From: Gammaproteobacteria bacterium
Lineage (GTDB): Bacteria > Pseudomonadota > Gammaproteobacteria > Xanthomonadales > Wenzhouxiangellaceae
DNA: 64,000 nt
Assembly: GCA_021772975.1 (NCBI GenBank)
Contig: JAJFKY010000022.1
Location: 62,001 to 126,000 of the forward strand
Direction: 5' to 3'
Below are positions 4,638 through 43,219 of this stretch, in pieces (position 1 is the stretch's first letter; each line of letters starts with the position of its first letter). The notes under the pieces were generated by a model that saw only the letters and a list, made by a program, of their open reading frames with translations, had not been told where the DNA came from and ran no database searches. The translations under genes and the position numbers were made by a program.

Positions 4638-4640
4638 GCC

Positions 4641-6582: not shown

Positions 6583-6903
6583 GAGCCGACTGGAAAGCAT
6601 AAACAGCCACACCCGTGCCGCCAGATAACCCACCACGCCGACCCCGATCAACAGTTGGGATACCTGCCCCGGTAAACCGTTAAAACCAGTCTGCTGAAAC
6701 CACCACACCAGAAAACCGCACAGCGTGATCAGCATGCCCAGATAAGTGAGCATCCGCGCCCGGTAACGCAACTTGCGCAACTGACGTGCTTGCAGCACTT
6801 CGGGTTCAATGCTGACGCCGGTTTTACTGAAACCGCAATGTGGACAGGTATCGGCCAGGCTGGATATACGCTGGCTGCAGCTCGGACAACTGACAATAGA
6901 CAT
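6571..6903 (-). CDS. zinc-ribbon membrane protein
   Basis: 110 residues. The N-terminus carries a zinc ribbon with two CxxC knuckles ('CPSC' at 6-9 and 'CPHC' at 20-23). A basic linker ('RQLRKLRYRAR') leads to two hydrophobic helices, about residues 51-70 ('MLTYLGMLITLCGFLVWWF') and 82-105, and a basic tail. This topology suggests an inner-membrane protein with a cytosolic zinc finger. No partner gene is evident: it converges with the secreted hypothetical and is separated from the two-component genes by about 150 bp. Confidence 0.7.
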   Translation of the reverse strand: MSIVSCPSCSQRISSLADTCPHCGFSKTGVSIEPEVLQARQLRKLRYRARMLTYLGMLITLCGFLVWWFQQTGFNGLPGQVSQLLIGVGVVGYLAARVWLFMLSSRLKKL

Positions 6904-7057
6904 CTTCTCTAGCTACTCTCTCCATCGACCAGACTACAGTCTGCCATGCATCTTCTATGGAAGGAAACCGGGCTGCCGTGGGCCACTGGATGACTGTCTG
7001 AAATGCACTCTGGCAGAACCCATCGGTGCAGCCATCAGCGGTTAAGAAGCTGTTCTG

Positions 7058-8344: not shown

Positions 8345-8363
8345 TCAGTCAATTCGCAAGGCG

Positions 8364-9071: not shown

Positions 9072-9154
9072 TGGTTATTCTCACACTTGTCTGGACTGGA
9101 CGATCACTGGCCAGTCTTATCTATCAGATCGTAACGGAGTCGCCCATCCTGTCG

Positions 9155-9191
9155 AAAAAAAGCCCAAGCCGATACATTATCGTGCTTGGGC
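9155..9191 (-). terminator. intrinsic terminator of the pilTU operon
   Basis: Read on the minus strand, stem GCCCAAGC/GCTTGGGC continues into CGATA/TATCG around a 3-base loop with one bulged base, and is followed by seven T. A strong rho-independent terminator about 170 bp after the pilU stop. Confidence 0.9.
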
Positions 9192-9290
9192 CTAATTATG
9201 CTCAGTTAACCGTAATCATCGCAGTGCTTTGGACGGGCTATGACCCAAAGTACGCAATGATAATAGTCCCTATCACGTTAAACGGCAGTT

Positions 9291-9307
9291 AATAGCAAAT
9301 TGCTATT
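9291..9307. promoter_or_regulatory. 17-base palindrome downstream of pilU
   Basis: Perfect arms AATAGCAA and TTGCTATT around a single A. It is too tight to be a good RNA hairpin without losing the centre, so a protein-binding site is possible. It shares the core CAAATTG with the 25-base palindrome at 33758-33782. Confidence 0.35.
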
Positions 9308-9365
9308 ATCAACAACATTCTGGCCAGCCTGGCTGGATCTATCAGCAGCGCTATCACAGGCTCGC

Positions 9366-10499: not shown

Positions 10500-10537
10500 T
10501 CATTCTCCTGCTTACAGGTTTCCGGTCGGTCAGCCGG

Positions 10538-11575
10538 TCATTCAAAATTCCGCTTATTATGCGCTTTGCGCGCAGCCTCTTTCTTGTGCACTATACCGCG
10601 GTTGACCAGTGCCTCCAGGGCCGAATCCATGGTCTGCATACCGATGTTCTGACCGGTCTGAATCGCTGAGTACATCTGGGCGACTTTATCTTCGCGGATC
10701 AGGTTACGGATCGCGGCATTGGCAATCATGATCTCATGCGCGGCCACGCGGCCACCGGACTTGCGCTGCAGCAGAGTCTGGGTCACCACCGCACGCAGCG
10801 ACTCGGACAGCATCGAGCGGATCATGGGCTTTTCACCGGCCGGGAACACATCGATGATCCGATCCACCGTTTTAGGCGCCGAGCTGGTATGCACCGTAGC
10901 AAATACCACGTGGCCGGTTTCGGCCGCCGTCATGGCCAGCCGAATGGTTTCCTGATCGCGCAGCTCGCCCACCAGAATGACGTCCGGATCTTCACGCAGC
11001 GCGGCACGCAGGGCGGAATTAAAGCTGCGCGCATCGCGGCCCACTTCACGTTGATTGATCAGGCAATTCTTGCTTTGATGAACAAATTCGATGGGATCTT
11101 CGATGGTCAGGATATGCCCGGAAGTCGTTTTATTAAGGTGATCCACCATCGCGGCCAGGGTGGTGGATTTACCCGAACCGGTCGGACCGGTGACCAGAAA
11201 CAGACCACGCGGCACCATAATCATATCGCGGAAAATCGGTGGCGCCTCGAGATCATCCAGCGTCAGAATTTCTTCCGGAATCACACGGAATGCACACCCG
11301 GTGCCACGGTCATGATGAAAGGCGTTGACCCGGAAACGCGCCAGGCCGGAGATGTTATAAGAATAATCGACATTCAGATCAGCTTCGAAATCACGCCGCT
11401 GATGATCAGTCATGGTGCTGTAAATCAGCTCCGCGGTTTCTTTCCGGTCCAGCACATCGATGTCGAGGCGGCGGATTTCACCATCCACGCGGATCATCGG
11501 CGGCAGACCAACCGATAAATGCAGGTCAGAGGCTTTGTGACGAACTGTGAATGCCAGCAACTCGGCGATATCCAT
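10538..11575 (-). CDS. pilT: type IV pilus retraction ATPase PilT
   Basis: 345 residues from the ATG at 11575, which has AGGA seven bases upstream; an in-frame GTG two codons earlier is less likely. It powers depolymerisation of the pilus for twitching motility. Walker A 'GPTGSGKST' (about 130-138 from this start), 'ILTIEDPIEFVH', Walker B 'PDVILVGELRDQETI', His box 'GHVVFATVHT' and the retraction-specific C-terminal motif 'AIRNLIREDK' are present. Length matches the P. aeruginosa protein (about 344). Divergent from yggS, as in pseudomonads. Confidence 0.97.
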   Translation of the reverse strand: MDIAELLAFTVRHKASDLHLSVGLPPMIRVDGEIRRLDIDVLDRKETAELIYSTMTDHQRRDFEADLNVDYSYNISGLARFRVNAFHHDRGTGCAFRVIPEEILTLDDLEAPPIFRDMIMVPRGLFLVTGPTGSGKSTTLAAMVDHLNKTTSGHILTIEDPIEFVHQSKNCLINQREVGRDARSFNSALRAALREDPDVILVGELRDQETIRLAMTAAETGHVVFATVHTSSAPKTVDRIIDVFPAGEKPMIRSMLSESLRAVVTQTLLQRKSGGRVAAHEIMIANAAIRNLIREDKVAQMYSAIQTGQNIGMQTMDSALEALVNRGIVHKKEAARKAHNKRNFE

Positions 11576-11706
11576 ACGCACTTCCTAAAATATTCATGCT
11601 CAAGCAGTTTAGAATAACATCCATGTCATCCGAAACTGTATCAGCTTAAAGTGACTGATGTCATCCTGAAACACAACTCGAACTGCTGCTGGAAAAACCA
11701 ACTGTC

Positions 11707-12384
11707 ATGCCGACGCTTGCACAACGCTACGAGGACTTGACCTCGCAACTGCACCAGACCGCTCCGAAAGCTCAACTGCTGGCGGTCAGCAAAGGCCAGC
11801 CGGTCAGTAAAATACGTGACCTGTATGCTTTGGGCCAGCGCGCATTCGGTGAAAACTATCTGGACGAAGCCACCCGGAAAATCGCTGCCTGTCAGGACTT
11901 GCCGGAACTACAATGGCACTTCATCGGGCCTTTGCAGCGCAATAAAACCCGCCCGATCGCCGCTCAGTTTGACTGGGTGCACAGTGTTGACAGAGCGTTG
12001 CTGATCAAGCGCCTGGCGAGCCAGCGGCCGGATCATCTGCCGCCGTTACAAATTCTGCTGCAGATCAATGTTGATGATGAAAGCCAGAAAGCCGGCGCGC
12101 CAGCCAGCCAGATTCCAGCCCTGCTGCAAACCATCGGCACATGTCCCACACTCCAGCTGCGTGGCATTATGGGCATCCCTGAAAACAACCAGAATGAGCA
12201 AGGGCTACGTGCCAGTTTCCGCGCGCTGGCGGCAGCGCACCAGCAGTGTCAAACCATCAATCGCAGCAGCCAGGATACGATTGATACCTTATCGATGGGC
12301 ATGTCGGGGGACTGGCGGATTGCGGTTCAGGAGGGTGCTACCATGGTGCGTATCGGTACCGCCCTGTTCGGCCCCCGGGATTGA
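11707..12384 (+). CDS. yggS: PLP homeostasis protein, YggS/PROSC family
   Basis: 225 residues. Cytosolic pyridoxal-phosphate-binding TIM-barrel protein without known catalytic activity, involved in B6 homeostasis. Motifs: 'LLAVSKGQPVSKIRDL' with the PLP lysine, 'FGENYLDEA', 'LQWHFIGPLQRNKT', 'LLQINVDDESQKAG', 'LRGIMGIPEN', and the C-terminal 'LSMGMSGDWRIAVQEGATMVRIGTALFG', which is nearly invariant in the family. The pilT-yggS-proC-yggT order is the common gammaproteobacterial one. Confidence 0.95.
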   Translation: MPTLAQRYEDLTSQLHQTAPKAQLLAVSKGQPVSKIRDLYALGQRAFGENYLDEATRKIAACQDLPELQWHFIGPLQRNKTRPIAAQFDWVHSVDRALLIKRLASQRPDHLPPLQILLQINVDDESQKAGAPASQIPALLQTIGTCPTLQLRGIMGIPENNQNEQGLRASFRALAAAHQQCQTINRSSQDTIDTLSMGMSGDWRIAVQEGATMVRIGTALFGPRD

Positions 12385-12435
12385 CCGCCACGGCCACCGG
12401 CAGCACCACGGCGCAGCAATGAGAACAGCGATTTT

Positions 12436-13251
12436 ATGAACGATTTACGGATAGGCATTATCGGTGCCGGCAACATGGCCCAGGCCTTAATCAGCGGCCT
12501 GGTCAAGCAGGGTTTTCAGCACGGGCTGATCGCCGCCGATCCGAGCGCGGAAGCGCGCAACGCAGTCACCGCCCACTACCAGATCAAGACAACCGCGGAC
12601 AACAGCGCCGCGGTCAGCGATGTCGATGCCATTATCCTGGCGGTCAAACCGCAAATCATGGCCGCCGCCCTGGCCAGCATCAAAGCCAGCGTGGATCAAC
12701 GGCAGCTGGTTATTTCCATTGCCGCGGGCATCCCCAGCACAGCTATCAGCGCGGGGCTGACCGCGCACCAGCCGGTGGTACGCGCGATGCCGAACACCCC
12801 GGCCCTGATTGGCGCGGGCATCAGCGGCATGGTCGCCAACCAGTATGTCAATGCTTCCCAGCGCCAGCTGGCAAAACGGATTCTGGAGGCCACCGGCGAA
12901 GCGGTCTGGCTTCCGGATGAAACTCAGATGGATGCGGTAACCGCCGTCTCCGGCAGTGGGCCAGCCTATTTTTTCCTATTACTCGAGGCACTCACCCAGG
13001 CAGGCGAAAAGATTGGCCTGGAACCGGCTACCGCGGCCCGGCTGGCGCTGGCCACCGGTGCTGGAGCATGCCGCTTAGCCAGTCAATCTGAACTCAGCCC
13101 GGGCGAGTTGCGGGCTCGCGTGACTTCGCCCGGCGGCACCACCGCGGCGGCACTGGATGTGCTGCAGGGCGGCGGTTTCAATGAGTTACTGGAGCAAGCC
13201 GTCAGCGCCGCCAGGCAACGTGGTGCCGAACTGGCTGCCGGGACTGATTGA
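12436..13251 (+). CDS. proC: pyrroline-5-carboxylate reductase
   Basis: 271 residues. Reduces 1-pyrroline-5-carboxylate to proline with NAD(P)H, the last step of proline synthesis. N-terminal Rossmann fold 'IGIIGAGNMAQALISGL' (5-21), 'VVRAMPNTPALIGAGI' and the C-terminal dimer-domain signature 'VTAVSGSGPAYFF' and 'LRARVTSPGGTTAAAL'. Length equals E. coli ProC (269). Its stop is three bases before the yggT ATG, suggesting translational coupling. Confidence 0.97.
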   Translation: MNDLRIGIIGAGNMAQALISGLVKQGFQHGLIAADPSAEARNAVTAHYQIKTTADNSAAVSDVDAIILAVKPQIMAAALASIKASVDQRQLVISIAAGIPSTAISAGLTAHQPVVRAMPNTPALIGAGISGMVANQYVNASQRQLAKRILEATGEAVWLPDETQMDAVTAVSGSGPAYFFLLLEALTQAGEKIGLEPATAARLALATGAGACRLASQSELSPGELRARVTSPGGTTAAALDVLQGGGFNELLEQAVSAARQRGAELAAGTD

Positions 13252-13253
13252 AC

Positions 13254-13793
13254 ATGCAACCGATTGCTGCATTCCTGTATCTGGCCGACACCATCATCCA
13301 GATATTTTCACTGCTGCTGTTGCTGCGCGTGCTGCTGCAACTGGTGCGCGCGGATTATTACAACACCCTGGTACAAATTATCGTGCAGATCACCGATCCG
13401 GTGCTCAAGCCCGCCCGCAAACTGATCCCTTCCGTGGGCCGGGTCGATATGGCGGGCGTGGTCTGCTTTTTCAGCTTGCAACTGCTGGCTCTGCTGCTGC
13501 GTTATCTGGCCAATGATGCCCCGATCCATTGGGGCAACCTGTTGTTCCATGCGCTGCAACGCAGCATTCAGTCAGTGTTAATCACCTATCTGGTATTAAT
13601 TATTGCCAATGTGCTGATCAGTTGGTTCGGCCAGCGGGCGCGGCATCCGATTATTCCGCTGATTTATCAGCTGACCGAACCGCTGCTGGGGCGTATTCGT
13701 AAAGTCCTGCCGGGCTTCGGCGGACTGGATTTATCGCCCCTGGTTGCCATCATCGGCATCAACTTTTTGATGATTCTGATAGGATTGAGCTAA
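13254..13793 (+). CDS. yggT: YggT-family membrane protein
   Basis: 179 residues from the ATG at 13254; an in-frame TTG at 13248 overlaps the proC stop and is less likely. Two repeated YGGT units: residues about 1-85 ('LLLLLRVLLQLVRADYYN...ITDPVLKPARKLIPSVG') and about 95-175 ('LLISWFGQ'-like segment, 'LTEPLLGRIRKVLPGFGGLDLSPLVAI'). Each half has the pattern helix - 'T(D/E)P.L.P.R..(I/L)P' - helix. Inner-membrane protein of poorly known role, linked in other bacteria to osmotic stress tolerance. Confidence 0.9.
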   Translation: MQPIAAFLYLADTIIQIFSLLLLLRVLLQLVRADYYNTLVQIIVQITDPVLKPARKLIPSVGRVDMAGVVCFFSLQLLALLLRYLANDAPIHWGNLLFHALQRSIQSVLITYLVLIIANVLISWFGQRARHPIIPLIYQLTEPLLGRIRKVLPGFGGLDLSPLVAIIGINFLMILIGLS

Positions 13794-31803: not shown

Positions 31804-33627
31804 ATGAATAAAGTACCCATTAAGGTTCCTGATATCGGTGACTTCGACGATATCCCGGTCATTGAAGTACTGGTTACCGAAGGTGATCAGGTCGAACAGG
31901 ATCAATCGCTGATCACCCTGGAAAGCGATAAAGCCACCATGGAGGTCCCTGCCCCACAGGCAGGCACCATCAGCAGCCTGAAGGTCAGCGTTGGCGATAC
32001 GGTTTCCGAGGGTATGGTGATTGCTGAACTGGAAATCAGTGACGCTGAGCACAGTGAGGATGCGTCACAGGATACTGCCGATGTCGGTGCCGAGGCTGAA
32101 GCTGAACAAACGGCTGCCAGCGATCATCCGGCCGCTAAGACCGATCAGCCCGATCGATCAGCCGGGCCTGAGCCTGCTGAGCGCGAACAAGATCAGGGAT
32201 CAGCAGACTCTGAGCATGACTATGACTGCGACGTACTGGTGCTGGGCGCGGGCCCAGGGGGTTATTCAGCAGCTTTCCGGGCAGCCGATCTGGGTCTTGA
32301 CGTGGTACTGGTAGAACGCGAACCGGTGTTGGGCGGTGTCTGCCTGAATGTCGGCTGTATTCCTTCCAAGGCGCTGCTGCACACCGCCAGGATTCTGGAT
32401 GAAACCCGGCATATGGCTAACAACGGCATCAGCTTTGGTGAACCGGATATTCAGCTGGACAAACTACGCAGCTGGAAGGATTCGGTGGTCAAGCGGCTTA
32501 CCAATGGATTAACCGGGCTGGCCAAACAGCGCAAGGTTCGCGTGATCACCGGCACCGGCAAATTTACCGGCTCGCATGAACTGGATATTGATGGGCGCGA
32601 CGGCAATCAGACCATCTCTTTTGCGCATGCCATTATCGCCGCCGGTTCCGAGCCGGTGCAGCTACAGGGTCTGCCCTGGGATGACGAACGGCTGATGGAT
32701 TCCACCGGCGCTCTCGAACTGGCGGACATCCCGGGTAAACTGCTGGTCATTGGCGGTGGAATTATCGGTCTGGAAATGGCTTGCGTGTATGCGGCGCTGG
32801 GCAGTGAGGTGACGATTGTTGAGTTGCTGGAACAACTCATGCCGGGCACCGATAAGGACCTGGTCAAGCCTTTGCAGAAACTGCTCACCCAGCGCTGTAA
32901 AGAAATTTGTCTGGCAACCAAGGTTGACAGCATCACCGCAACGGATGATGCTCTGCAAGTCAGTTTCAGCGGCAAACAGATTCCCGCTACCGAGCACTTT
33001 GACCGCGTTCTGGTAGCGGTAGGGCGAGTACCTAATGGGCGTGCTCTTGGCGCGGACCAGGCTGGCGTGAAGGTAACTGAACGCGGGTTCATCGAAGCCG
33101 ATCAACAGCAGCGCACCAACGTCAAACACATCTTTGCCATAGGCGATGTTATCGGACAACCCATGCTGGCCCACAAGGCCACCCATGAAGGCAAGGTGGC
33201 CGCCGAAGTGATTGCTGGAGAAGCGAGTTATTTCGATGCCAAAGTGATTCCTTCAGTCGCCTATACTGACCCTGAAGTAGCCTGGGCCGGTGTTACTGAA
33301 ACGCAGGCTCGAGAAGATGGCCTGTCCATAGAGACAGCCAAATTCCCATGGGCCGCCAGCGGCAGAGCATTGGGCATGGACCGTGACGAAGGCTTTACCA
33401 AACTGATTTTTGATGCTGACTCCAAACGCATAGTCGGCGCCGGCATTGTAGGCCCACACGCAGGTGACCTGATCGCCGAATGCTGCCTGGCGATTGAGAT
33501 GGGCTGTGATGCCGAGGATATCGGTCTGACCATCCATCCACACCCCACCCTTTCAGAAACCGTGGGTATGGCAGCGGAGGCATTTGCCGGCACGCTGACG
33601 GATCTGTACATGCCAAAGCCAAAATAA
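31804..33627 (+). CDS. lpd: dihydrolipoamide dehydrogenase (E3) with N-terminal lipoyl domain
   Basis: 607 residues. A lipoyl domain (1 to about 78; lipoyl Lys43 in 'LESDKATMEVP') and an acidic linker (about 80-135) precede a full E3. The E3 has FAD-binding 'VLVLGAGPGGYSAAFRAADL', redox disulfide 'GGVCLNVGCIPSKALLH', NAD-binding 'LLVIGGGIIGLEMACVYAALG', 'IFAIGDVIGQPMLAHKATHEG' and C-terminal 'TIHPHPTLSETVGMAAE' with the catalytic His-Glu pair. It reoxidises dihydrolipoyl groups. Lipoyl-E3 fusions are known in Neisseria, Cupriavidus and others. The domain is close in sequence to that of AceF, suggesting duplication. Confidence 0.97.
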   Translation: MNKVPIKVPDIGDFDDIPVIEVLVTEGDQVEQDQSLITLESDKATMEVPAPQAGTISSLKVSVGDTVSEGMVIAELEISDAEHSEDASQDTADVGAEAEAEQTAASDHPAAKTDQPDRSAGPEPAEREQDQGSADSEHDYDCDVLVLGAGPGGYSAAFRAADLGLDVVLVEREPVLGGVCLNVGCIPSKALLHTARILDETRHMANNGISFGEPDIQLDKLRSWKDSVVKRLTNGLTGLAKQRKVRVITGTGKFTGSHELDIDGRDGNQTISFAHAIIAAGSEPVQLQGLPWDDERLMDSTGALELADIPGKLLVIGGGIIGLEMACVYAALGSEVTIVELLEQLMPGTDKDLVKPLQKLLTQRCKEICLATKVDSITATDDALQVSFSGKQIPATEHFDRVLVAVGRVPNGRALGADQAGVKVTERGFIEADQQQRTNVKHIFAIGDVIGQPMLAHKATHEGKVAAEVIAGEASYFDAKVIPSVAYTDPEVAWAGVTETQAREDGLSIETAKFPWAASGRALGMDRDEGFTKLIFDADSKRIVGAGIVGPHAGDLIAECCLAIEMGCDAEDIGLTIHPHPTLSETVGMAAEAFAGTLTDLYMPKPK

Positions 33628-33873: not shown

Positions 33874-34191
33874 ATGAAATATTTACTTAGCTTGTTTTTA
33901 TTACTCTTTATTTCCATCAGTGCCAATGCGGGCGTTGAGCTGAACTGTGAGTCTGTAGTGGGTGGAGAATCGTATATCTGCGATATTATTCCTACCGGCT
34001 CAACGCAAATTCAAAGTAGCGCCTGGTCCGCGACTTTTCCACTAGTCGTGCAAAGCGCTACGACCTTCACCGCCACTTTCCGCTGTGCAAGCCATAATAT
34101 GGATGGTGCGGCCGCGGTCAGCTACGTCACCAACGATGGCAGCGGATCTGCATCGCATGTCACATCATGTACTGCAGGCGGGCCCTTTTAA
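33874..34191 (+). CDS. small secreted four-cysteine protein (105 aa)
   Basis: From ATG 33874, which has AAAGGA eight bases upstream, the product has a clear signal peptide (residues 1-20, 'KYLLSLFLLLFISISANA') and a mature chain of about 85 residues. The mature part contains four cysteines ('LNCES', 'YICDI', 'FRCAS', 'TSCTA'), enough for two disulfides, and many Ser/Thr/Ala/Val residues in beta-prone runs, as in small Ig-like or lectin-like secreted domains. I recognise no family. The gene and its leader are AT-richer than the flanking metabolic genes. It stands alone on its strand between lpd and the sulfotransferase-like genes. Tyr residues follow the second Cys region and near 'AVSYVTND'. 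Confidence 0.65.
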   Translation: MKYLLSLFLLLFISISANAGVELNCESVVGGESYICDIIPTGSTQIQSSAWSATFPLVVQSATTFTATFRCASHNMDGAAAVSYVTNDGSGSASHVTSCTAGGPF

Positions 34192-34201
34192 CTGATCAGC
34201 T

Positions 34202-34226
34202 CAGGAGCAGATAATTTCTGCTCCTG
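34202..34226 (+). terminator. hairpin after the small secreted protein gene
   Basis: CAGGAGCAGA / TCTGCTCCTG, 10-bp perfect stem with a five-base loop TAATT, ten bases after the stop. The following GTTCTG is not a T tract, so termination strength is uncertain. Confidence 0.6.
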
Positions 34227-34409
34227 GTTCTGCTGTGGCAGTTGTTGCCGGGTAGTAATACAATACACAACCGCGCACCTAACTACTGCTGCATACTTCA
34301 GCCTTTTTAAAGCCTATACCAGCAGCTGGCTTTATCCTCAGCACGGTTTGACAAACCCAGGATTGACGCGCAATATTCGAGCCTGACTCGCCTGCACAGA
34401 CCATTGCGT

Positions 34410-35468
34410 ATGCCAACAGCTCAAGAACTTGTTGTTAGTGAAAACTATCTTGCTTACCGCATTGACCTGCATCAAGAGATTATAGAATTCATGTCCATCA
34501 GGCGCGACGAAATGCGCCTGGTAAGTTGCCTGAAGCGTGAGTATATCGAACCACAGCGCCAGCTACACGCATTGCCTATCGCCGAAGTTCAGCAGCTGCT
34601 AAGTTCAACGGACCAGCAGAATGTCCACCCAGCACCGCACTTTATCTTTCATACCGCGTTTTGCGCGTCGACTTACTTATCACGCTGCCTGGATATTAAA
34701 GGTAAAACAGTTTCCCTCAGAGAACCGCAAATTCTTTTGGACGCAGCCAATGCAAAACGGCTCAGATGGCGCTCTCGATCCGGCCTGCTTGATCATCGCA
34801 TATTGCCAGAGCTGGCATTAAAGCTGTTAGTAAAACATGCTAAAGCAGGCGAAACGCTCATCATCAAGCCTATCAATTCAATCAATAACATTATGACTGA
34901 ATTATTACGCCTGCACGCTGACAGCAAAGCACTGCTGCTGTACACGGATGCGCGCCGCTTTCTGCTTTCGACACTCAAGAAGGGTGAAGGCGGGAAGCGC
35001 ATGATCAGGACCATGTTTGATTTGATTCGCTGTGATTTTCCTCATTTATCCAATCTTCGCTTAACCGATGTCGTCAGAATGACGGACATCACGGTTATTC
35101 TGACCTTATGGCGCCTGCATATTGAGCAGGCTGAACAAGCATTGCAACAGCACTCCGCGAATGGCAATCTCGCGTCTTTGTATGGCGAAACTGTGATAGA
35201 AAAGCCTTTAGAATCATTACAGGCGATCAATCAGTATTTAGAGCTGGGACTGTTGCCAGAAACTCTTGCAGAAATAACCGCCGGCAAGGTGCGAACGGAA
35301 GATGCCAAGCATACAGGCCAATCGTTCAGCTTATCCGAGCGCGATAAAATCCATCATCGTATTGAGACATTTTATGCCGGGGAACTGAATCAATGCCTGC
35401 AATGGCTAACCAAAAACAATCCGGAAACACGATTAATACCCAGGCTTGGCAGCCCGCTGTCAGTCTAA
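34410..35468 (+). CDS. sulfotransferase-fold-like P-loop protein, variant loop 'HTAFCAST'
   Basis: 352 residues from ATG 34410 (a TTG start two codons earlier is possible). 'PHFIFHTAFCASTYLSRCLD' near residues 77-95 occupies the place of the PAPS 5'-phosphosulfate loop of bacterial sulfotransferases ('xGMPRTGSTLLExxL' in the TPR protein of this window), but the loop Arg-Thr-Gly is replaced by Phe-Cys-Ala. Further on are 'VSLREPQILLD', 'LIIKPINSINNIMTELL', 'ALLLYTDARRFLLSTLKKGEGGKRM' and 'WRLHIEQAEQAL', in the order expected of the fold. There is no signal peptide. PAPS binding is doubtful. Homologous to the gene facing it at 35591-36607. Confidence 0.6.
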   Translation: MPTAQELVVSENYLAYRIDLHQEIIEFMSIRRDEMRLVSCLKREYIEPQRQLHALPIAEVQQLLSSTDQQNVHPAPHFIFHTAFCASTYLSRCLDIKGKTVSLREPQILLDAANAKRLRWRSRSGLLDHRILPELALKLLVKHAKAGETLIIKPINSINNIMTELLRLHADSKALLLYTDARRFLLSTLKKGEGGKRMIRTMFDLIRCDFPHLSNLRLTDVVRMTDITVILTLWRLHIEQAEQALQQHSANGNLASLYGETVIEKPLESLQAINQYLELGLLPETLAEITAGKVRTEDAKHTGQSFSLSERDKIHHRIETFYAGELNQCLQWLTKNNPETRLIPRLGSPLSV

Positions 35469-35590
35469 AACTCAAGCTGCTTATTCAATACAGCAGGCTT
35501 ATTATCACCGAGCGTAATAAAATTCTGCCGCACCGCAATAGCAGCTGGCAGCCTCGCTGCCGTGAGACTTTATAAGTAATGCCGTAAAGT

Positions 35591-36607
35591 CTATTGCAGT
35601 ATAGAATTTGCCCGCATACGCTCGAGAGCACCAGGTGGCAGCAAACCCATGGCCAGACTTTCAGTCGCCGCTATATTCTGCTGTTCTGCTGTTATATCAA
35701 GTTCCGAATTCATCGACGGGCTGTTGTTCTGCTGTTTCGAGTCTTTATTCATCACCGACGAAACAGACGTAAAGTCGCGCTTATCGCGGATACCAAAAAA
35801 CCTATCACAAGCGCTCACCACCTGCTCCGGGTGATTGACAATATCATCTTTGCTGAGCGTCACCGCAGACAGTGTTTGCTGTTGTAGAAAGCCTGAAAAC
35901 AGCCGGATCTGAGCAGCCCAGAGATAAGCGATGTCCCGCCAGAAATCATTGCCTGGCTGGTATTCGTGCCGCCATTCAATGTCTTTGCAGAGACTGCGCA
36001 GAAACACCGGCAATGTCTTAACCGCTTCCTGGCGATTCTTTAGCATCGAACGAACAAAAGAACCGATCCCCCCCCAGACAATCACTACCCGGCTCTGTTG
36101 ATCAATGTTCTGCAACTGCATCAATAAGGCATTCATATAATTCGACGTTTTCAGAATCACTTGTTGATGGGGATGAAAGGGCTTGCATAACTGCAGGCTT
36201 ATCTTTTCCAGCAGTGCTGTGTAGCCTGAAGCATTGCCCGGCTGCTGCCGATACGCATCCGCCAGCTGGTTAAATACCAATGGCTCCTTTATAGCCAGCA
36301 CGTCATCTGGCCGCTGTAACAGCCTTGCCAGCAATGTTGAGCAACAAAAGCTGGTGTGAAATATCCAGCGACTGTTACGCAAAGGTACATGCTGATGCGC
36401 GAGCAGACTCGATATTGGCACAGCGAATAGTGCTTCGTTGCTGCTGAAGGTTATGCGTTGATCCACAAATGGCGCATCGTAAAGCGCCTGTTCTGACAAT
36501 TGCCTGAACAGCACCCGAGAGTTGACACCGTCGATATGCCAAGGAATGGCGCCTGGCAGCTGCAGCAGTTCTGCAGCAGCGGTTTGGGAGAGTTTATGTA
36601 TTTGCAT
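35591..36607 (-). CDS. sulfotransferase-fold-like P-loop protein, variant loop 'HTSFCCST'
   Basis: 338 residues. 'SRWIFHTSFCCSTLLARLLQ' at 79-98 is the same variant P-loop as in the converging neighbour, followed by 'VLAIKEPLVFNQLADAY' , 'VILKTSNYMNALLMQLQ', 'SRVVIVWGGIGSFVRSMLKNRQEAVK' and 'WAAQIRLFSGFL'. The helix-rich C-terminus has a Gln/Asn/Ser-rich linker ('KQQNNSPSMNSE') and ends 'LLPPGALERMRANSIL', a motif similar to the other protein's 'LGLLPETLAEI'. The ATG directly abuts the T tract of the upstream receptor's terminator, so it has no ordinary Shine-Dalgarno site. Function unknown. Confidence 0.6.
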   Translation of the reverse strand: MQIHKLSQTAAAELLQLPGAIPWHIDGVNSRVLFRQLSEQALYDAPFVDQRITFSSNEALFAVPISSLLAHQHVPLRNSRWIFHTSFCCSTLLARLLQRPDDVLAIKEPLVFNQLADAYRQQPGNASGYTALLEKISLQLCKPFHPHQQVILKTSNYMNALLMQLQNIDQQSRVVIVWGGIGSFVRSMLKNRQEAVKTLPVFLRSLCKDIEWRHEYQPGNDFWRDIAYLWAAQIRLFSGFLQQQTLSAVTLSKDDIVNHPEQVVSACDRFFGIRDKRDFTSVSSVMNKDSKQQNNSPSMNSELDITAEQQNIAATESLAMGLLPPGALERMRANSILQ

Positions 36608-36657: not shown

Positions 36658-39600
36658 TTAGAAACGATGGGTAACGCGCGCGAACCAGGAACGACCCAGC
36701 AGACGATAGGTGTCCACGTCGGTGTTCGCATTAAAGCCGCGAGTGATGAACGGAGGATCCGAATCAAAGATATTCGTAATACCACCGGAGATCTCGGTAC
36801 CCCAAGCGAAGTTGTAGCGAGCGGTTAAATCAACATACCATTCCGCAGGAATGTTGTTGATCGGACCACCTGGCGCCTGGCCAATACCCTGGTTCAAATC
36901 TTCAGTGACAGAATCCAGATATTCAACATTCACAGATGCACCAAAGTCACCCAGTGACCAGTCCAGAGTGAACAGGCCTTTCCATTCAGGATAGATAGCT
37001 TCAGTCAAACCGTTACGGTCATCAAACTGACCGGATACGTTGATCGTATCGTCAGGCAGTCCCTGGCTGGCCAGAGAGTCACCAAATACGAATGAAGTAC
37101 GTTCGTCAAGCCAGGTAACCAACAGACGTGCATCGAATAAACCGAAGCCGGTGTTGAAGTTATAGTTGAAGCCAAAGTCGATACCGCTGGCGCTTTCACC
37201 ACCGATATTGGTTGCCAGCGATTCAATCTGTGCAACTTCACCGACATTACCGAAGCTTTGACGGGTGATATCGTTACAGAATGCATCCTGACCACCCTGT
37301 ACACACAGGGCAATAACGGTCTGGGCAGCAATACCGCCACCGGCAATGGCGTTATCCAGGCTCACATCCCAGTAGTCAGCGGTGAAGCTGAAGCCAGGCA
37401 GGAAGTCTGGAGAGAACGCGATACCGACGGTGTAGGTTTCACCACTTTCAGGACCTACATTTGGATTACCGCCGACACGTGAACGTGGCTGGGCGTTGGT
37501 CTGATCAAATGTAAATGGCTGTCCGTTGGCGTCCATACCCGTTACGATTGCGCCGGTCTGAACACACCGTGCCTGTTCAGCAGCGCTCAGAGCGGCGAAG
37601 CTGTTGGTCGGGTTAGAAGCAACCGAAGCGCTGGAACGACAGATGTCCAGGAAGCTTGGGAAGCTGTCGCCCTGTGGCGAGAACAGGTTACCGATGGTTG
37701 GCTCACGGAATACTTCCGCGAAACTACCACGAACCAGGAAACCACGGAAAGGCTGCCAGCGCAGTGAGCCCTGGAAGTTGCCGGTATCACCAATGGTGGA
37801 GTAGTCGTCGTAGCGGAAACCACCACCGATTTCCAGCAGTTCTGCGCCTGGTACACCAGACAGCAGGGGAATGTTGACTTCGATGAACAATGAATCCACA
37901 TCGAATTCACCAGTGGTACGGCCAAACACGTTACCAGTTACTGAATTGGTTGCTTTACCTGAATCAGGGATAGCATCCAGTTCCTGTTTACGGAACTCGT
38001 AACCGAACGCGGTAGACAGTGGGCCAGCTGGCAGTTCAAATACGTCACCTTTGATGGTGGCGTTGAATACCTGCAATTGGGTTTCAATGCTGTCATTCAG
38101 TTCAAACTCGATGAAGTCCAGCTGTTCCTGGGTGATGCTGCCGAAACCACCGAACAGATTCAGTGGTACACAGCCTGCAATTGCGGCGCCTGGGGTACCA
38201 CAAGTTGCAACACCGTTTTCATCAAAGAAAGATGGGCCGATGGCCTGCAGGAAGTTAGCGCCAACCAGCTGACCGAAATCGGTGTTAGCTTCGCGCTCAC
38301 GACCCCAGTTCCAGGAAACGTCCCAGCTCCAGGTCGGTGCGAAATCGCCGAAGTCACCACGCAGACCACTGTTGATCTGGATGATGTTTTCTTCCTGCTC
38401 AAACCGGCGGCGGCTTTCAGCTACACGACGGCGAAGGTCGGTAACCGGCAAACCGAATGGGTTAAAGGCATTGTTGGAAGGAATACCAAACTGACCAGCC
38501 AATGGCAACGCTGGATCATTGTCCAGAGGCACTGTGGGATCGAAGATGTTCTGAATAAGGAACAGTGGGTTAGGAGCCAGTTCCTGTTCAGACTGACGGT
38601 TGTTGTAACGAGCTTCTACATAAGCTTCTAAACCATCAAACAATTCATAGTCACCCTGGAAGAACACACTGGTGCGTTCAAACGGGGTCTGGATGAAGTT
38701 AACCGGTGCGAAGTTGTACAGATCGCCGCCTGCTGCGTTGAACGGACGTATTTCACCGGTCTGCAGATCACGGGTAAATGCACCAGCGTTAGGATCATCA
38801 ACCGGGTTGAAGAAACCACCCAGGGAAGCACTGCTGCCGCCGTTGGCATTACAGCTGCCGGTTGACAGACAGCCCGGGAAGCCATCATTGATGAAACCAG
38901 CCTGATCAGCAACGTTAATAACGTTCTGAAACTGTGGTCCGATGTCGCCGCCGATCTGACCCTGATAAACCGGGCTCTGTTCGTTGAATTCAATACCAGC
39001 AACGAAGTTACCGCGCTCGGTGTTACCGCCGAAAGTGAAAGCAACACGCTTAACCGTTCCATCAGTACCGGTAAACGCCGGATTAAGATTGGTAGCGGAA
39101 GCAATGTTGTCATCCAATTCGAAAGATGCGCCATACTGCGCCTGCAGCTCAGCACCTTCAAAATCACGACGGGTGATGATGTTAATTACACCAGCAACCG
39201 CATCAGCACCATAAATAGCCGCCGCACCTTCTTTCAGTACGTCAATGCGTTCTACCAGTGCGATTGGAATATTAGAAAAGTCGCCGCCGGTGATGTCACG
39301 CTTGCCATTGATCAGTACCAGAGTACGAACTGATCCAAGACCGCGGATATCAACCAGAGTAGCACCACTGCCGCCGTTGTTGGTGCTGGTTGACAAAGGC
39401 GAACCGCCGATAGACGGCAACTGACGGATAACGTCAGCAAGGTCAGTCAAACCGATACGCTCAATGTCTTCACGATCAATTGAGGTTACCGGTGACGCGC
39501 CTTCGATATCTACTTGGCTCAGACGGGAGCCAGTTGTTTCGATGCGTTCCAGTTCAGCAGCATCATCGTCCTGGGCAAAAGCCTGACCTGACAATGCCAG

Positions 39601-39669
39601 ACCAGCAATCGCACCAGTGCCGAGCGCAAAGCGCACTGACTGGTAGAGGGGATTACGGTTAAATTGCAT
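36658..39669 (-). CDS. TonB-dependent receptor, about 1000 aa
   Basis: 1003 residues. Outer-membrane gated channel driven by TonB-ExbBD. Signal peptide (about 1-32, ending 'SGQAFAQ'), TonB-box region 'ELERIETTGSRLS', plug domain (about 45-165) with 'SPVTSIDREDIERIGLTDLADVIRQLP', 'LVDIRGLGSVRTLVLINGKR' and 'IDVLKEGAAAIYGADAVAGVINIIT', then a long barrel ending in the canonical aromatic 'YRLLGRSWFARVTHRF'. There is no N-terminal signalling (STN) domain. Large receptors of this type usually import peptides, polysaccharide fragments or other bulky ligands rather than simple siderophores, but nothing here fixes the substrate. GGAG seven bases before the ATG. Confidence 0.93.
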   Translation of the reverse strand: MQFNRNPLYQSVRFALGTGAIAGLALSGQAFAQDDDAAELERIETTGSRLSQVDIEGASPVTSIDREDIERIGLTDLADVIRQLPSIGGSPLSTSTNNGGSGATLVDIRGLGSVRTLVLINGKRDITGGDFSNIPIALVERIDVLKEGAAAIYGADAVAGVINIITRRDFEGAELQAQYGASFELDDNIASATNLNPAFTGTDGTVKRVAFTFGGNTERGNFVAGIEFNEQSPVYQGQIGGDIGPQFQNVINVADQAGFINDGFPGCLSTGSCNANGGSSASLGGFFNPVDDPNAGAFTRDLQTGEIRPFNAAGGDLYNFAPVNFIQTPFERTSVFFQGDYELFDGLEAYVEARYNNRQSEQELAPNPLFLIQNIFDPTVPLDNDPALPLAGQFGIPSNNAFNPFGLPVTDLRRRVAESRRRFEQEENIIQINSGLRGDFGDFAPTWSWDVSWNWGREREANTDFGQLVGANFLQAIGPSFFDENGVATCGTPGAAIAGCVPLNLFGGFGSITQEQLDFIEFELNDSIETQLQVFNATIKGDVFELPAGPLSTAFGYEFRKQELDAIPDSGKATNSVTGNVFGRTTGEFDVDSLFIEVNIPLLSGVPGAELLEIGGGFRYDDYSTIGDTGNFQGSLRWQPFRGFLVRGSFAEVFREPTIGNLFSPQGDSFPSFLDICRSSASVASNPTNSFAALSAAEQARCVQTGAIVTGMDANGQPFTFDQTNAQPRSRVGGNPNVGPESGETYTVGIAFSPDFLPGFSFTADYWDVSLDNAIAGGGIAAQTVIALCVQGGQDAFCNDITRQSFGNVGEVAQIESLATNIGGESASGIDFGFNYNFNTGFGLFDARLLVTWLDERTSFVFGDSLASQGLPDDTINVSGQFDDRNGLTEAIYPEWKGLFTLDWSLGDFGASVNVEYLDSVTEDLNQGIGQAPGGPINNIPAEWYVDLTARYNFAWGTEISGGITNIFDSDPPFITRGFNANTDVDTYRLLGRSWFARVTHRF

Positions 39670-39911: not shown

Positions 39912-41411
39912 ATGCAAGCAACGCTTAAAGAACAACTCCGGCTGGCTGCTGAGCTGACCGCCCAGGGCCAGCTTGACCGGGCAGCCGGATACTATCAGCA
40001 ACTGCTGCAGGCTAACCCTGAGCTGGCTGAAGCCTTGCTTGGTTTTGGCACTTTGAACCTGCACAGCGGCCAGCCGGAGCAGGCGCTGGGCCTGTTGCAG
40101 CGGGCTTCCGCGCAATTACCCCGGCATCCCGGTGTATGGTTGAATCTGGCCCGTACCTATCGGCAACTGGCTCACACTGAAGACGCCCGGGCAGCCCTTG
40201 ACCGGGCGCTGCAATTCAGCCCGGAGGATCCGCTGGCGCATCTTGAGTCCGGCCATTTGTACACTGACCAGGCTGACCATCAGGCTGCCGTGCAGGCCTA
40301 TCAGCGAGCGCTGAGCCTGGATCGGAACTGCATGGAAGGTTATTACAGCCTGTCCCTGCTCCACCAGAGCGGCGATTACCAGTTTTCCGAAGCACAGCTG
40401 CTGCAATTGCAGCACTGGGCCGAGCAGCCAGACTCGTTCAGCACCGACCAGCTCAGCCTGCTGTATTTTACTCTGGGACGCATTCAGCACCGGGCGAGCG
40501 AATACGCTGCGGCATTCCATAGCTTTACCCGGGCCAACCAAGCTAAAAAAAATGCCCAGCAGGGCTGGGAACGGTATGATCTGGCAGCCAAACAGGCGTT
40601 GCTGGAAGCCAGCCGGCGGGCTTTTACCGAGCCGGCACAGCGCCTCACTGCCGGACCACAGCGTCAGCCTGAACCCATTTTTATCATCGGCATGCCGCGT
40701 ACCGGCTCTACCCTGCTGGAAACCTGCCTGGCGCGTCATCCGCGGATCGCTGCGGCCGGTGAGCTGGCGGTCATCAAGACCATCGCCAGACAGCAGTTGC
40801 CCCAGGCCACCGGGTTGGCTTATCCGGACTTGATGGGTCAACTGCCTGACGAACTGGCGCATCTGACAGCCCGTCATGTCAGACAGCAGCTGGCACGTCG
40901 CGCCAGGCAGCCGGATCAGACCGAGCCGCCCCGCTACATCAGCGACAAAATGCCCACCAATTTTGAATACCTGGGACTGATTAACCGGCTGTTCCCAGGA
41001 GCTCGCGTCATTCACCTGATGCGCGACCCGATGGATACTCTGTGGAGCTGTTATCAGCAGAACCTGGCGGCACGCTACAGCAATGACTTTGCTGATCTGG
41101 AGGGCCAGTACCGCTGTTACCGGGAATTTATGCGCTTATGGCGCACCAACGGCATCCCGATGCTGGAATTGCACTATGAAGCCCTGGTGACCAGTTTTGA
41201 AGCCAGCCTGCGGCAGGTGATTGACTATCTGGGCCTCAGCTGGGACAAGCGTTGCCTGGACAGCAGTGCTGATACCATCGCCGTGACCACCGCCAGCCGC
41301 ATGCAGGTGCGCAAACCAATCCATACCGGTGCTATCAGCGCCTGGCAAAAATATGCCACCCAGTTGGGCCCGCTGCGACAACGCCTGGATGATTTTTATT
41401 CGGATAACTGA
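39912..41411 (+). CDS. TPR-repeat sulfotransferase
   Basis: 499 residues. The N-terminal 240 residues are tetratricopeptide repeats of about 34 residues ('AAGYYQQLLQANPELAEALL', 'PGVWLNLARTYRQLAHTEDA', 'PLAHLESGHLYTDQADHQAA'). The C-terminal domain is a sulfotransferase with an intact PAPS loop 'IGMPRTGSTLLE' (259-270), 'YISDKMPTNFEYLGLI', the 3'-phosphate motif 'VIHLMRDPMDTLWSCYQQ' and 'LELHYEALV'. Such proteins are thought to sulfate proteins or other bulky acceptors held by the TPR part, which is inference. Cytosolic, no signal peptide. Divergent from the TonB receptor, with 242 bp between the starts. Confidence 0.9.
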   Translation: MQATLKEQLRLAAELTAQGQLDRAAGYYQQLLQANPELAEALLGFGTLNLHSGQPEQALGLLQRASAQLPRHPGVWLNLARTYRQLAHTEDARAALDRALQFSPEDPLAHLESGHLYTDQADHQAAVQAYQRALSLDRNCMEGYYSLSLLHQSGDYQFSEAQLLQLQHWAEQPDSFSTDQLSLLYFTLGRIQHRASEYAAAFHSFTRANQAKKNAQQGWERYDLAAKQALLEASRRAFTEPAQRLTAGPQRQPEPIFIIGMPRTGSTLLETCLARHPRIAAAGELAVIKTIARQQLPQATGLAYPDLMGQLPDELAHLTARHVRQQLARRARQPDQTEPPRYISDKMPTNFEYLGLINRLFPGARVIHLMRDPMDTLWSCYQQNLAARYSNDFADLEGQYRCYREFMRLWRTNGIPMLELHYEALVTSFEASLRQVIDYLGLSWDKRCLDSSADTIAVTTASRMQVRKPIHTGAISAWQKYATQLGPLRQRLDDFYSDN

Positions 41412-41476: not shown

Positions 41477-43219
41477 TTAATTCAGATCGGCGGCAATACG
41501 CTGCTGCTGGTCCATTAACCCGGCGGGCAAACGTTCGCCAAACTGCTCCAGATGGACTTTGATCTGGGCCAGCTCAGCAGCCCAGCTCTGCCGGTCAACA
41601 CTCAATAGCTGCGTCAGTGCCGACGGCTCAATATCCACCCCTTCCAGATTGATATCCTCCGGCCTGGGAAGGTGGCCGATCGGACTGTGCAGGGATTCGC
41701 TGTGTCCGTGGCAACGCTGGATGATCCATTCCAGCACCCGCATGTTTTCGCCGAAGCCGGGCCACATGAACTGACCCTGCTCGTCCTTGCGGAACCAGTT
41801 AACATGAAAAACCTTGGGCAAGTGTTCCAGCCGGTCGGCAAAACCCAGCCAGTGCGCCCAGTAATCGGCGAAGTTATAGCCGCAAAAAGGCTGCATTGCC
41901 ATGGGATCACGTCGCACTATGCCGGTGGCTCCGGTGGCGGCGGCGGTGGTTTCCGATGCCATCGCCGCGCCGACCAGTACGCCATGCTGCCAGTCAAAAC
42001 TTTCAAACACCAATGGCACCAGTGACGCGCGCCTGCCTCCGAAAATGAGCGCGGAAATCGGCACCCCGGACGGCGCCTCGGCTTGTGGAGAGTAACTGGG
42101 ACAATGTTTGATCGACACGGTAAAGCGTGAGTTGGGATGCGCCGCCGGACCATTGGCGGGATCATAATCACGCCCCTGCCAGTCCTTGACCGGCAACTCG
42201 TCGGATTTGCCTTCCCACCAGGGTTCATTGTTGGCGGTAACCGCCACATTGGTAAAAATAGCGTCTTTGTTCAACATCGCCAAAGCGTTCGGATTGGTGG
42301 CTTCACTGGTGCCCGGCGCGACGCCAAAAAAGCCAGCCTCGGGGTTGATCGCCCATAACCTGCCATCCTCACCCGGATGCAGCCAGCAGATGTCGTCCCC
42401 TACCGTCCAGACTTTCCAGCCGGGATAACTGGCCGGCGGAATCAGCATGGCCAGATTGGTTTTACCGCAGGCCGAGGGAAAGGCCGCCGCCACATAGGTT
42501 TTTTCACCTTGCGGGTTCTCAATACCGACAATCAGCATGTGCTCGGCCAGCCAGCCTTCCTGGCGGGCCTGATAGCTGGCGATGCGCAGGGCGTGGCACT
42601 TTTTACCCAACAGAGCATTGCCGCCATAGCCAGAGCCGTAACTCTGAATTTGCAGCTCTTGCGGGAAATGCATGATAAAACGCCTGGCCGGATCCAGCTC
42701 GCCGATGGAATGCAGACCTTTCACGAATACGCCGTCACGCTCGATCCGCCGCAGTGCTGCGCTGCCCATCCGGGTCATCAGGCGCATATTGGCGGCTACG
42801 TATGCACTGTCGGTAATTTCCACTCCGCAACGCGACAGCGGCGAATCGATCGGCCCCATGCAGTAAGGTACAACATACATGGTCCGCCCCTGCATGCAGC
42901 CGGCAAACAGCTCATCCATTCTGCGATGCGCATCGGCCGGTGCCAGCCAGTTGTTATTGGGTCCGGCATCCTGCTCCTCTGTTGTACAGATGAAAGTCAG
43001 ATGCTCAACCCGGGCGACATCCTGCGGATCAGAGCGGTGCAGATAACAACCGGGATGGGTGGTTTGATTCAACTCCAGCAGATCACCGCAGTCCAGCATC
43101 AGCCGGATCAGCTGATCATATTCAGCCTGTGAGCCGTCACACCAGTGCACCTGCGCCGGGCTGGTCAAAGCCGCGACTTCATTGACCCATTGATTGAGCT
43201 GATCGTGTTTGCTTTGCAT
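41477..43219 (-). CDS. pckG: phosphoenolpyruvate carboxykinase (GTP)
   Basis: 580 residues. Converts oxaloacetate and GTP to phosphoenolpyruvate, the first step of gluconeogenesis from TCA intermediates. GTP-type hallmarks: 'RTMYVVPYCMGPIDSPLSR' (112-130), kinase-1a loop 'FPSACGKTNLAM' (247-258) with reactive Cys251, 'VGDDICWLHPGEDGRLWAINPEAGFFGVAPGT', 'NAIF'-like 'DAIFTNVA', and 'VNWFRKDEQGQFMWPGFGENMRVLEWI' (read in parts). Many gammaproteobacteria have the ATP-dependent PckA instead. Monocistronic and convergent with the TPR-sulfotransferase. Confidence 0.97.
   Translation of the reverse strand: MQSKHDQLNQWVNEVAALTSPAQVHWCDGSQAEYDQLIRLMLDCGDLLELNQTTHPGCYLHRSDPQDVARVEHLTFICTTEEQDAGPNNNWLAPADAHRRMDELFAGCMQGRTMYVVPYCMGPIDSPLSRCGVEITDSAYVAANMRLMTRMGSAALRRIERDGVFVKGLHSIGELDPARRFIMHFPQELQIQSYGSGYGGNALLGKKCHALRIASYQARQEGWLAEHMLIVGIENPQGEKTYVAAAFPSACGKTNLAMLIPPASYPGWKVWTVGDDICWLHPGEDGRLWAINPEAGFFGVAPGTSEATNPNALAMLNKDAIFTNVAVTANNEPWWEGKSDELPVKDWQGRDYDPANGPAAHPNSRFTVSIKHCPSYSPQAEAPSGVPISALIFGGRRASLVPLVFESFDWQHGVLVGAAMASETTAAATGATGIVRRDPMAMQPFCGYNFADYWAHWLGFADRLEHLPKVFHVNWFRKDEQGQFMWPGFGENMRVLEWIIQRCHGHSESLHSPIGHLPRPEDINLEGVDIEPSALTQLLSVDRQSWAAELAQIKVHLEQFGERLPAGLMDQQQRIAADLN

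What the first reader, a model, noticed from the sequence alone, without database searches (positions are those of the whole stretch)
34410..36607. Sulfotransferase-like family with PAPS-loop Arg-Thr-Gly replaced by Phe-Cys-Cys/Ala
Both proteins keep the fold pattern (loop 'FHTSFCCSTLLARLL', then 'KEP', then 'ILKTSNYMNALL') but lose the residues that normally contact the 5'-phosphosulfate, gaining one or two cysteines in the loop. This suggests another ligand, a redox-active site, or a non-catalytic role. They face each other and are divergent paralogues.
Basis: partly seen in the sequence, partly recalled or inferred. Interest (0 to 1): 0.5.

Follow-up and report, generated by a model that had tools for sequence, protein, structure and literature searches.

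The report
Sulfotransferase-fold partners of TonB receptors
Two neighbouring bacterial genes encode a protein family without an entry in the family libraries checked; it has the shape of sulfate-transferring enzymes but lacks the arginines that normally hold the sulfate donor, and it often sits beside an outer-membrane uptake receptor and other modifying enzymes.

Summary
ORF1 (34410-35468, +) and ORF2 (35591-36607, -) are convergent and carry FHTAFCAST and FHTSFCCST where the neighbouring canonical TPR-sulfotransferase has PRTGST. Both confident AlphaFold models match tyrosylprotein sulfotransferases best (Z 15.7 and 14.6), and profile comparison supports sulfotransferase homology. No Pfam or NCBIfam model reaches its cut-off. 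The family lacks the basic PAPS-loop residue and the 3'-phosphate arginine, yet keeps the catalytic-base Glu, Lys153, Ser90/Thr91, His84 and Lys291. Arginine-bearing (GRCGST) sulfotransferases sharing its N-terminal extension are close relatives. The first Cys is shared with them and the second is often Gly, so a vicinal-Cys redox site is unlikely to be general. New here: members often sit beside a TonB-dependent receptor, a TPR-sulfotransferase, a TPR-Asp/Asn beta-hydroxylase and other 2OG-oxygenases, though not always. The lpd-ORF2-receptor-TPR-sulfotransferase-pckG order recurs in a congener, split by a contig end. Best reading: a cytoplasmic sulfotransferase-fold modifier of the receptor or its cargo, with a remodelled donor pocket. 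Donor, substrate and catalysis are untested, and a non-catalytic adaptor is not excluded.

The parts
34410..35468 (+). ORF1, 352 aa from the ATG at 34410; sulfotransferase-fold family member with loop FHTAFCAST
   Evidence: model of the 354-aa form from 34404, pLDDT 93.7; best solved match TPST1 Z 15.7; nearest relative 49-50% identical, in a locus with hydroxylases, TPR-sulfotransferases and a receptor
35591..36607 (-). ORF2, 338 aa; sulfotransferase-fold family member with loop FHTSFCCST
   Evidence: model pLDDT 90.7; best solved match TPST1 Z 14.6; orthologue in the same genus 54% identical, also directly downstream of the receptor
36341..36364 (-). ORF2 residues 82-89 (IFHTSFCC): the degenerate PAPS loop itself
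   Evidence: sequence; aligned to PRSGTT of TPR-sulfotransferases and to GRCGST relatives
36658..39669 (-). TonB-dependent receptor (Plug + barrel), 50 bp upstream of ORF2 on the same strand
   Evidence: PF07715 7.4e-22 and PF00593 2.5e-25; one of 12 PF00593 places in the whole genome
39912..41411 (+). canonical TPR + Sulfotransfer_3 protein (loop GMPRTGSTLL), divergent from the receptor
   Evidence: PF13469 9.1e-39 plus TPR repeats
33874..34191 (+). small ORF (105 aa from the ATG at 33874; listed as 121 aa from a TTG at 33826) with a signal-peptide-like start by eye, upstream of ORF1; membership in the module is doubtful
   Evidence: no Pfam match; no hit in the 12 loci compared

Best explanation
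ORF1 and ORF2 belong to a family, without a Pfam or NCBIfam model, of cytoplasmic transferases with the sulfotransferase fold, related to Arg-bearing (GRCGST) sulfotransferases. Its donor pocket has been rebuilt: the two basic residues that usually hold the 5'-phosphosulfate and the 3'-phosphate of PAPS are gone, while the catalytic-base Glu (E108), the loop Ser/Thr, and invariant His84, Lys153 and Lys291 remain. It works as one enzyme of a small post-translational-modification set. In the window the set is the TonB-dependent receptor, ORF2, ORF1 and a canonical TPR-sulfotransferase; in many relatives also a TPR-Asp/Asn beta-hydroxylase and 2OG-oxygenases. I think its most likely job is to transfer a group, probably sulfate from PAPS held by the rebuilt contacts, onto a residue of the receptor or of a peptide or substrate that the receptor handles. 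Shown: fold (predicted), homology, residue losses and retentions, gene association. Inferred: catalysis, donor, substrate and cytoplasmic location (no signal peptide seen by eye; no predictor was run).
For: Fold: ORF2 model Z 14.6 and ORF1 model Z 15.7 to TPST1, and the 50 rows shown in each list are all sulfotransferase entries. Sequence profile A4 against PDB chains: the 18 matches at E up to 1 are sulfotransferases; 2zq5 and 4gox are labelled otherwise there but are titled sulfotransferases. Most of those matches cover only the C-terminal part, not the loop. Profile-profile to TPR-sulfotransferases E 1.5e-8, loop to Glu included, and to GRCGST sulfotransferases E 9e-13 and 9e-17, including the N-terminal extension. 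Positions invariant in 30 divergent rows: H84, S90, T91, E108, P109, K153, K291 in ORF2 numbering. The spacing from loop Thr to Glu is 17 residues in tick TPST (aligned, a weak match, E 0.054), in the GRCGST relatives and in this family. Gene association: in 58 of 80 loci with at least 8 kb on both sides, a receptor lies within 3 kb in 32, the beta-hydroxylase within 500 bp in 25, a TPR-sulfotransferase within 3 kb in 23. Densities beyond 4 kb are roughly a tenth or less of those in the first kb. The nearest receptor within 3 kb is in one of two orientations in 44 of 46 loci. In the same genus lpd-ORF2-receptor-TPR-sulfotransferase-pckG is conserved, split by a contig end.
Against: 17 of 80 family loci, and 12 of the 58 with full flanks, have none of the receptor or enzyme genes within 8 kb; of the 20 extra neighbourhoods (L115-L134) 11 have no partner over 60 bits. 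So the association is not obligatory. In G371 the receptor and TPR-sulfotransferase sit by pckG without a family member beside them. Loss of both phosphate-binding basic residues is what one would also expect of a protein that no longer binds PAPS. An Arg stands three positions on (residue 182) in 19 of 61 rows, so a shifted 3'-phosphate contact in some members is not excluded. No substrate gene is fixed: the small ORF upstream is not conserved. 41 of the 80 loci carry sphingomonad names (my count of the titles) and are not independent. The link to receptors may reflect a shared process and not direct modification.
Confidence: 0.42

Rival explanations
1. Non-catalytic pseudo-sulfotransferase: the protein keeps the fold as a binding module and acts as adaptor or specificity factor for the canonical TPR-sulfotransferase or the hydroxylases encoded beside it.
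For: Both PAPS-binding basic residues are lost across the family. A TPR-sulfotransferase lies within 8 kb in 27 of 80 loci. A second family member is in the locus in 12 of 80 and in the window.
Against: The positions that stay invariant in A1, whose rows go down to 17% identity to the first row, include the active-site ones (E108, K153, S90, T91, H84, K291), as expected of a working site. 17 of 80 loci have no receptor or partner enzyme of the profiled kinds within 8 kb.
Confidence: 0.27
2. Transferase or binder of a different donor or ligand: the loop has been retuned from PAPS to another phosphorylated or sulfated ligand.
For: An invariant His stands at the first loop position and a hydrophobic residue or His replaces Arg. 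The 3'-phosphate Arg column has no basic residue in 61 rows, so a ligand without a 3'-phosphate would fit. One family-bearing genome, G118, has no detected APS kinase.
Against: 17 of 18 family-bearing genomes have an APS kinase match and all 18 have Sulfotransfer_3 matches; but 42 of 44 and 41 of 44 of all genomes examined have them, so this says little, and G118 itself has 8 Sulfotransfer_3 matches. The helix Ser that usually sits by the 3'-phosphate is kept in 55 of 61 rows.
Confidence: 0.22
3. Redox-active or metal site built on the loop cysteines.
For: C88 is present in 111 of 115 sequences and C89 in 88 of 115 (80 of these were selected with FCC in the pattern).
Against: Among the 35 rows not selected by that pattern C89 is G in 25, A in 2 and C in 8 (counts minus the 80 seeds). 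The first Cys is also found in Arg-bearing relatives GRCGST, 4 of 4. Three members have V and one G at C88.
Confidence: 0.06

Closest known systems
GRCGST sulfotransferase-like proteins (alignment A6: L149, L150, L151, L154; Pfam Sulfotransfer_3 just above or below its cut-off)
   Same: Profile match over the N-terminal extension and the sulfotransferase domain, E 9e-17 with A1; same E-P and I-K segments and loop-to-Glu spacing; same first loop Cys
   Different: They keep the loop Arg (4 of 4) and the 3'-phosphate Arg in 'YR.......SF' (4 of 4); they form a separate branch, 100/100
Human and tick tyrosylprotein sulfotransferases (TPST1/TPST2; 5wrj, 3ap1, 8w5z)
   Same: Best structural match of both models: Z 14.6 with rmsd 3.6 over 216 residues for ORF2, Z 15.7 with rmsd 3.7 over 233 for ORF1; Glu at catalytic-base spacing
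   Different: About 12-16% identity; PRSGTT loop and 3'-phosphate Arg not kept; this family has an N-terminal extension and, by eye, no secretory signal
TPR + Sulfotransfer_3 proteins (PF13469), e.g. window 39912-41411
   Same: Sulfotransferase homologue in the same loci; profile match E 1.5e-8
   Different: TPR domain present; canonical loop with invariant R and G, and invariant R, D and S of the 3'-phosphate motif in 13 of 13 aligned
RaxST-type bacterial tyrosine sulfotransferases acting on a peptide (Xanthomonas raxX-raxSTAB; seen only as the start of an abstract in a search listing, PMC6637879)
   Same: Bacterial sulfotransferase encoded with the peptide system it serves
   Different: RaxST, RaxX, RaxA and RaxB were not compared or searched for here; no such precursor or exporter is evident among the ORFs listed

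Membership tests
PAPS-dependent sulfotransferase superfamily | Sulfotransferase alpha/beta fold with strand-loop-helix and strand-turn-helix | tested here: met
   predicted models of both ORFs
PAPS-dependent sulfotransferase superfamily | Conserved Lys or Arg in the PAPS loop (definition read in passages of PMC11625862) | tested here: not met
   0 of 115 sequences have R or K there; 0 of 30 in A1; two Arg-bearing hits were set apart as outgroup (L012, L013)
PAPS-dependent sulfotransferase superfamily | Arg of the 3'-phosphate motif (RxxxDxxxS, figure legend in PMC11625862) | tested here: not met
   No R or K at the aligned column in 61 rows (A 22, S 16, G 15, T 3, D 3, C 1, V 1); for A1 the call lists only the eight commonest residues (27 of 30 rows), none basic. 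R stands three positions on in 19 of 61
PAPS-dependent sulfotransferase superfamily | Ser on the 3'-phosphate helix | tested here: met
   S in 55 of 61; in A1 S 17, T 8, A 4, G 1 of 30
PAPS-dependent sulfotransferase superfamily | Catalytic base Glu or His | tested here: met
   E108 in 61 of 61 and 30 of 30, 17 residues after the loop Thr as in tick TPST; by sequence register only
PAPS-dependent sulfotransferase superfamily | PAPS-dependent sulfate transfer | not testable with these tools
   needs purified protein
Pfam Sulfotransfer_1 / Sulfotransfer_3 | Score above the gathering cut-off | tested here: not met
   ORF1 Sulfotransfer_1 13 bits against 22, ORF2 no sulfotransferase match. Of 61 members of A4, 2 match Sulfotransfer_3 and 1 Sulfotransfer_1 at E up to 0.01, best E 4.6e-4
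NCBIfam named families | Score above a curated cut-off | tested here: not met
   two window ORFs and 30 members of A1, best E 0.02
Tyrosylprotein sulfotransferase | Tyrosine O-sulfation of a protein substrate | not testable with these tools
   structural resemblance only
Tyrosylprotein sulfotransferase | PRSGTT PAPS loop | tested here: not met

The most novel reading that the evidence does not exclude
A new class of transferase that has abandoned the standard PAPS-binding arginines and modifies TonB-dependent receptors or their imported or exported peptides. It would act together with Asp/Asn beta-hydroxylases and canonical sulfotransferases, and so reveal an undescribed post-translational modification pathway of outer-membrane receptors in Pseudomonadota.
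Probability: 0.2. Interest if true: 0.8.

Novelty: new variant of a known kind. Interest (0 to 1): 0.52.

Why it matters
If active, the family would widen the definition of the sulfotransferase active site, since a review (PMC11625862, passages) says that the definition rests on the PAPS-loop Lys/Arg, the helix Ser and the sheet. It would also point to receptor-linked hydroxylation and sulfation in bacteria, a system I did not find among the papers listed (open-access library only, and only the top rows of some searches were shown). If it is a pseudoenzyme, it is a family that Pfam and NCBIfam miss. Either way, a three-gene unit (receptor, family member, TPR-sulfotransferase) conserved between lpd and pckG in one genus gives a small system to knock out.

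Tried and rejected
Pfam, NCBIfam: no assignment; the Mlh1_C and AA_kinase hits of ORF2 are below cut-off and contradicted by the fold.

First genome-contig query with the 19-row alignment failed for lack of a conserved stretch; a closer 8-row alignment was used, whose pattern contains FCC. The CC conservation in L035-L114 is therefore circular and I do not use it as evidence. Of 121 stretches matching the pattern 90 encoded a relative and the best 80 were kept.

L060 looked like a fusion (674 aa), but it has no Pfam match and I read the tail as non-coding read-through. The long N-terminal extensions of the frames in L088, L006/L134 and L003/L075 I likewise took as open-frame artefacts; these I did not test.

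APS kinase co-occurrence does not discriminate: 42 of 44 genomes have it. The same holds for Sulfotransfer_3, 41 of 44.

A horizontally acquired island was considered because GC falls to 0.489 at 34-36 kb. Synteny in the same genus shows that ORF2, receptor and TPR-sulfotransferase are old in this place. Only ORF1 and the small ORF are missing at that place in the one congener compared.

The 'FAM' counts include self matches and are replaced (12 of 80 loci with a second member). Searches count partners over 60 bits to profiles made from the same loci, so weaker kinds are missed: L053, counted as having none, has another 2OG-oxygenase next door.

Paper searches showed no description of the family or of the gene set in the rows listed. 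One paper (PMC10040529, passages only) lists, in a table of Pontixanthobacter clusters, sulfotransferases and an aspartyl beta-hydroxylase beside lasso-peptide genes; I did not check whether a family member is among its hypothetical proteins.

That K153 matches a catalytic Lys of TPST, and any TPST residue numbers, are recalled and come from no call.

Full report
What is there. ORF1 (34410-35468, +) and ORF2 (35591-36607, -) are convergent intact genes. Around them lie lpd (31804-33627, +), a small ORF with a signal-like start (33874-34191, +), a TonB-dependent receptor (36658-39669, -), a TPR + Sulfotransfer_3 protein (39912-41411, +; Pfam) and a gene I read as pckG (41477-43219, -). The names lpd and pckG are my reading of the sequences, from no call. 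Receptor and ORF2 are on the same strand with a 50-bp gap.

Family. ORF2 finds matches in 12 of 369 genomes of the class, own genome included; two of the twelve (G010, G013) match only through the Arg-bearing outgroup, so 10 of 369 hold the family proper. ORF1 finds matches in 9 of 61 relatives, own genome included. From these I aligned 30 rows (A1): 28 of the 30 non-window loci, leaving out L012 and L013, plus the two window ORFs. A scan of genome contigs with an 8-row alignment kept the best 80 of 90 confirmed loci. By my reading of the titles all names are Pseudomonadota, 41 of 80 sphingomonads. A4 has 61 rows: 59 of these 80 (21 near-redundant or doubtful frames left out) plus the window pair. 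No Pfam or NCBIfam model reaches its cut-off on the members scanned.

Fold and ancestry. The ORF2 model has pLDDT 90.7 and pTM 0.90, the ORF1 model 93.7 and 0.92. Both match tyrosylprotein sulfotransferases best: ORF2 Z 14.6, rmsd 3.6 over 216 residues; ORF1 Z 15.7, rmsd 3.7 over 233 (Foldseek, E 6.8e-6 and 6.3e-6). Profile searches agree. The closest Arg-bearing relatives found are four GRCGST proteins. They share the N-terminal extension and retain both arginines, with hhalign E 9e-13 to A4 and 9e-17 to A1. In a 64-row tree, a subsample of 118, they separate from the family at 100/100; the root is drawn at the midpoint. ORF1 pairs with a G256 protein (50% identical, 100/100) and ORF2 with its congener (54%, 99/96), so the two are old paralogues. 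The tree has several long branches, and the order of deep forks is unsure.

The active site. Of 115 members, 115 have His at the first loop position. The Arg/Lys position is F 93, H 19, Y 2, L 1. The next is C 111, V 3, G 1, then C 88, G 25, A 2, then S 115, then T 114 and S 1. 80 of the 115 were chosen by a pattern with FCC, so only the other 35 are informative for the cysteines: 31 have the first Cys and 8 the second. In A1 the residues H84, S90, T91, E108, P109, K153 and K291 (ORF2 numbering) are invariant in 30 of 30. The residue aligned to the 3'-phosphate Arg is non-basic in 61 of 61, though an Arg stands three positions on in 19 of 61. The Glu is 17 residues after the loop Thr, as in tick TPST and the GRCGST group (a weak match), so it should correspond to the catalytic base. 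The donor-holding basic residues are lost but a plausible catalytic apparatus remains.

Gene company. With home-made profiles I scored 100 loci and the window. In the 58 of 80 loci with at least 8 kb on both sides, a receptor is within 3 kb in 32, a TPR-Asp/Asn beta-hydroxylase (PF05118 in the one scanned) within 500 bp in 25, a TPR-sulfotransferase within 3 kb in 23, and 2OG-oxygenases of two kinds (PF13661/PF13640 and PF13759 in the ones scanned) within 3 kb in 6 and 5. Receptor density per locus per kb is 0.147 within 1 kb, 0.017 at 1-2 kb, 0.082 at 2-4 kb, 0.009 at 4-6 kb and 0.004 at 6-8 kb; the beta-hydroxylase falls from 0.224 within 1 kb to 0.004 at 2-8 kb. This distance profile is the only control for chance that I ran on these loci. 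Of 46 loci with a receptor within 3 kb, 35 have it convergent downstream, 9 upstream on the same strand as in the window, 2 otherwise. Of all 80, 53 have a receptor and 48 one of the enzymes within 8 kb, 38 both, 17 none; of the 58, 12 have none. Of the 20 further neighbourhoods (L115-L134), 9 show a partner over 60 bits and 11 do not; of L127-L132, all members with H at the Arg position, none has a receptor or hydroxylase, while L134, also with H, has both. The own genome has 12 receptor places, so a receptor as neighbour by chance is unlikely there.

Synteny. In the congener G369 lpd, the ORF2 orthologue and the receptor end lie on one contig, and pckG, the TPR-sulfotransferase and the receptor start at the end of another. 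In G372 the order is receptor, family member, TPR-sulfotransferase, a further frame, a second TPR-sulfotransferase, lpd. In G371 two receptors, pckG and a TPR-sulfotransferase adjoin and no family member was found in the 17 kb fetched there. ORF1 is not at that place in G369. Its closest homologue (L115, 49%) sits with two 2OG-oxygenases, a beta-hydroxylase, a second family member, three TPR-sulfotransferases and a receptor.

Reading. The gene company is one of protein- or peptide-modifying enzymes. The own genome holds another locus with beta-hydroxylase, sulfotransferase and DUF4915 domains in one 1003-aa frame, next to a 2OG-oxygenase, a predicted beta-helix protein and an APS-kinase-bearing gene; this suggests that hydroxylation and sulfation are coupled in this organism. 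I therefore favour an active transferase with a remodelled donor pocket working on the receptor or its cargo (0.42), over a pseudoenzyme adaptor (0.27), a non-PAPS donor or ligand (0.22), and a cysteine redox site (0.06). The fold is predicted and the gene association is shown; activity, donor and substrate are inference.

Noticed in passing
L143 (G000:C8:270000-289000), 1077-13608: A 1003-aa ORF holds Asp/Asn beta-hydroxylase, Sulfotransfer_3 and DUF4915 domains. It lies beside a 2OG-FeII_Oxy_5 protein, a 1813-aa beta-helix/Calx-beta protein and an APS-kinase-bearing gene.
   Followed up: partly
window 33874-34191: A 105-aa ORF with a signal-like N-terminus and several Cys lies just upstream of ORF1; no Pfam match and no hit in 12 compared loci.
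   Followed up: partly
window 36658-39669; L164 10138-10365; L126 2-484: The first 76 residues of the receptor are 91% identical to the congener's, against 57% over the last 181; the middle is cut off by a contig end.
   Followed up: no
window 34001-36000: GC is 0.489 here against 0.508-0.602 in the other 2-kb bins of the window.
   Followed up: partly
L117 661-13446: A locus with two TPR-sulfotransferases, a weak beta-hydroxylase hit and a family member lies next to a protein with a PEP-CTERM match just below its cut-off and a dockerin-bearing protein.
   Followed up: no
L115 14615-15526 and L116 5160-6125: A methyltransferase-domain gene also sits in two of the clusters.
   Followed up: no
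L039, L042, L047: Here the family gene stands near CoA-transferase-like genes (my reading of the sequences) without a receptor or hydroxylase close by.
   Followed up: no
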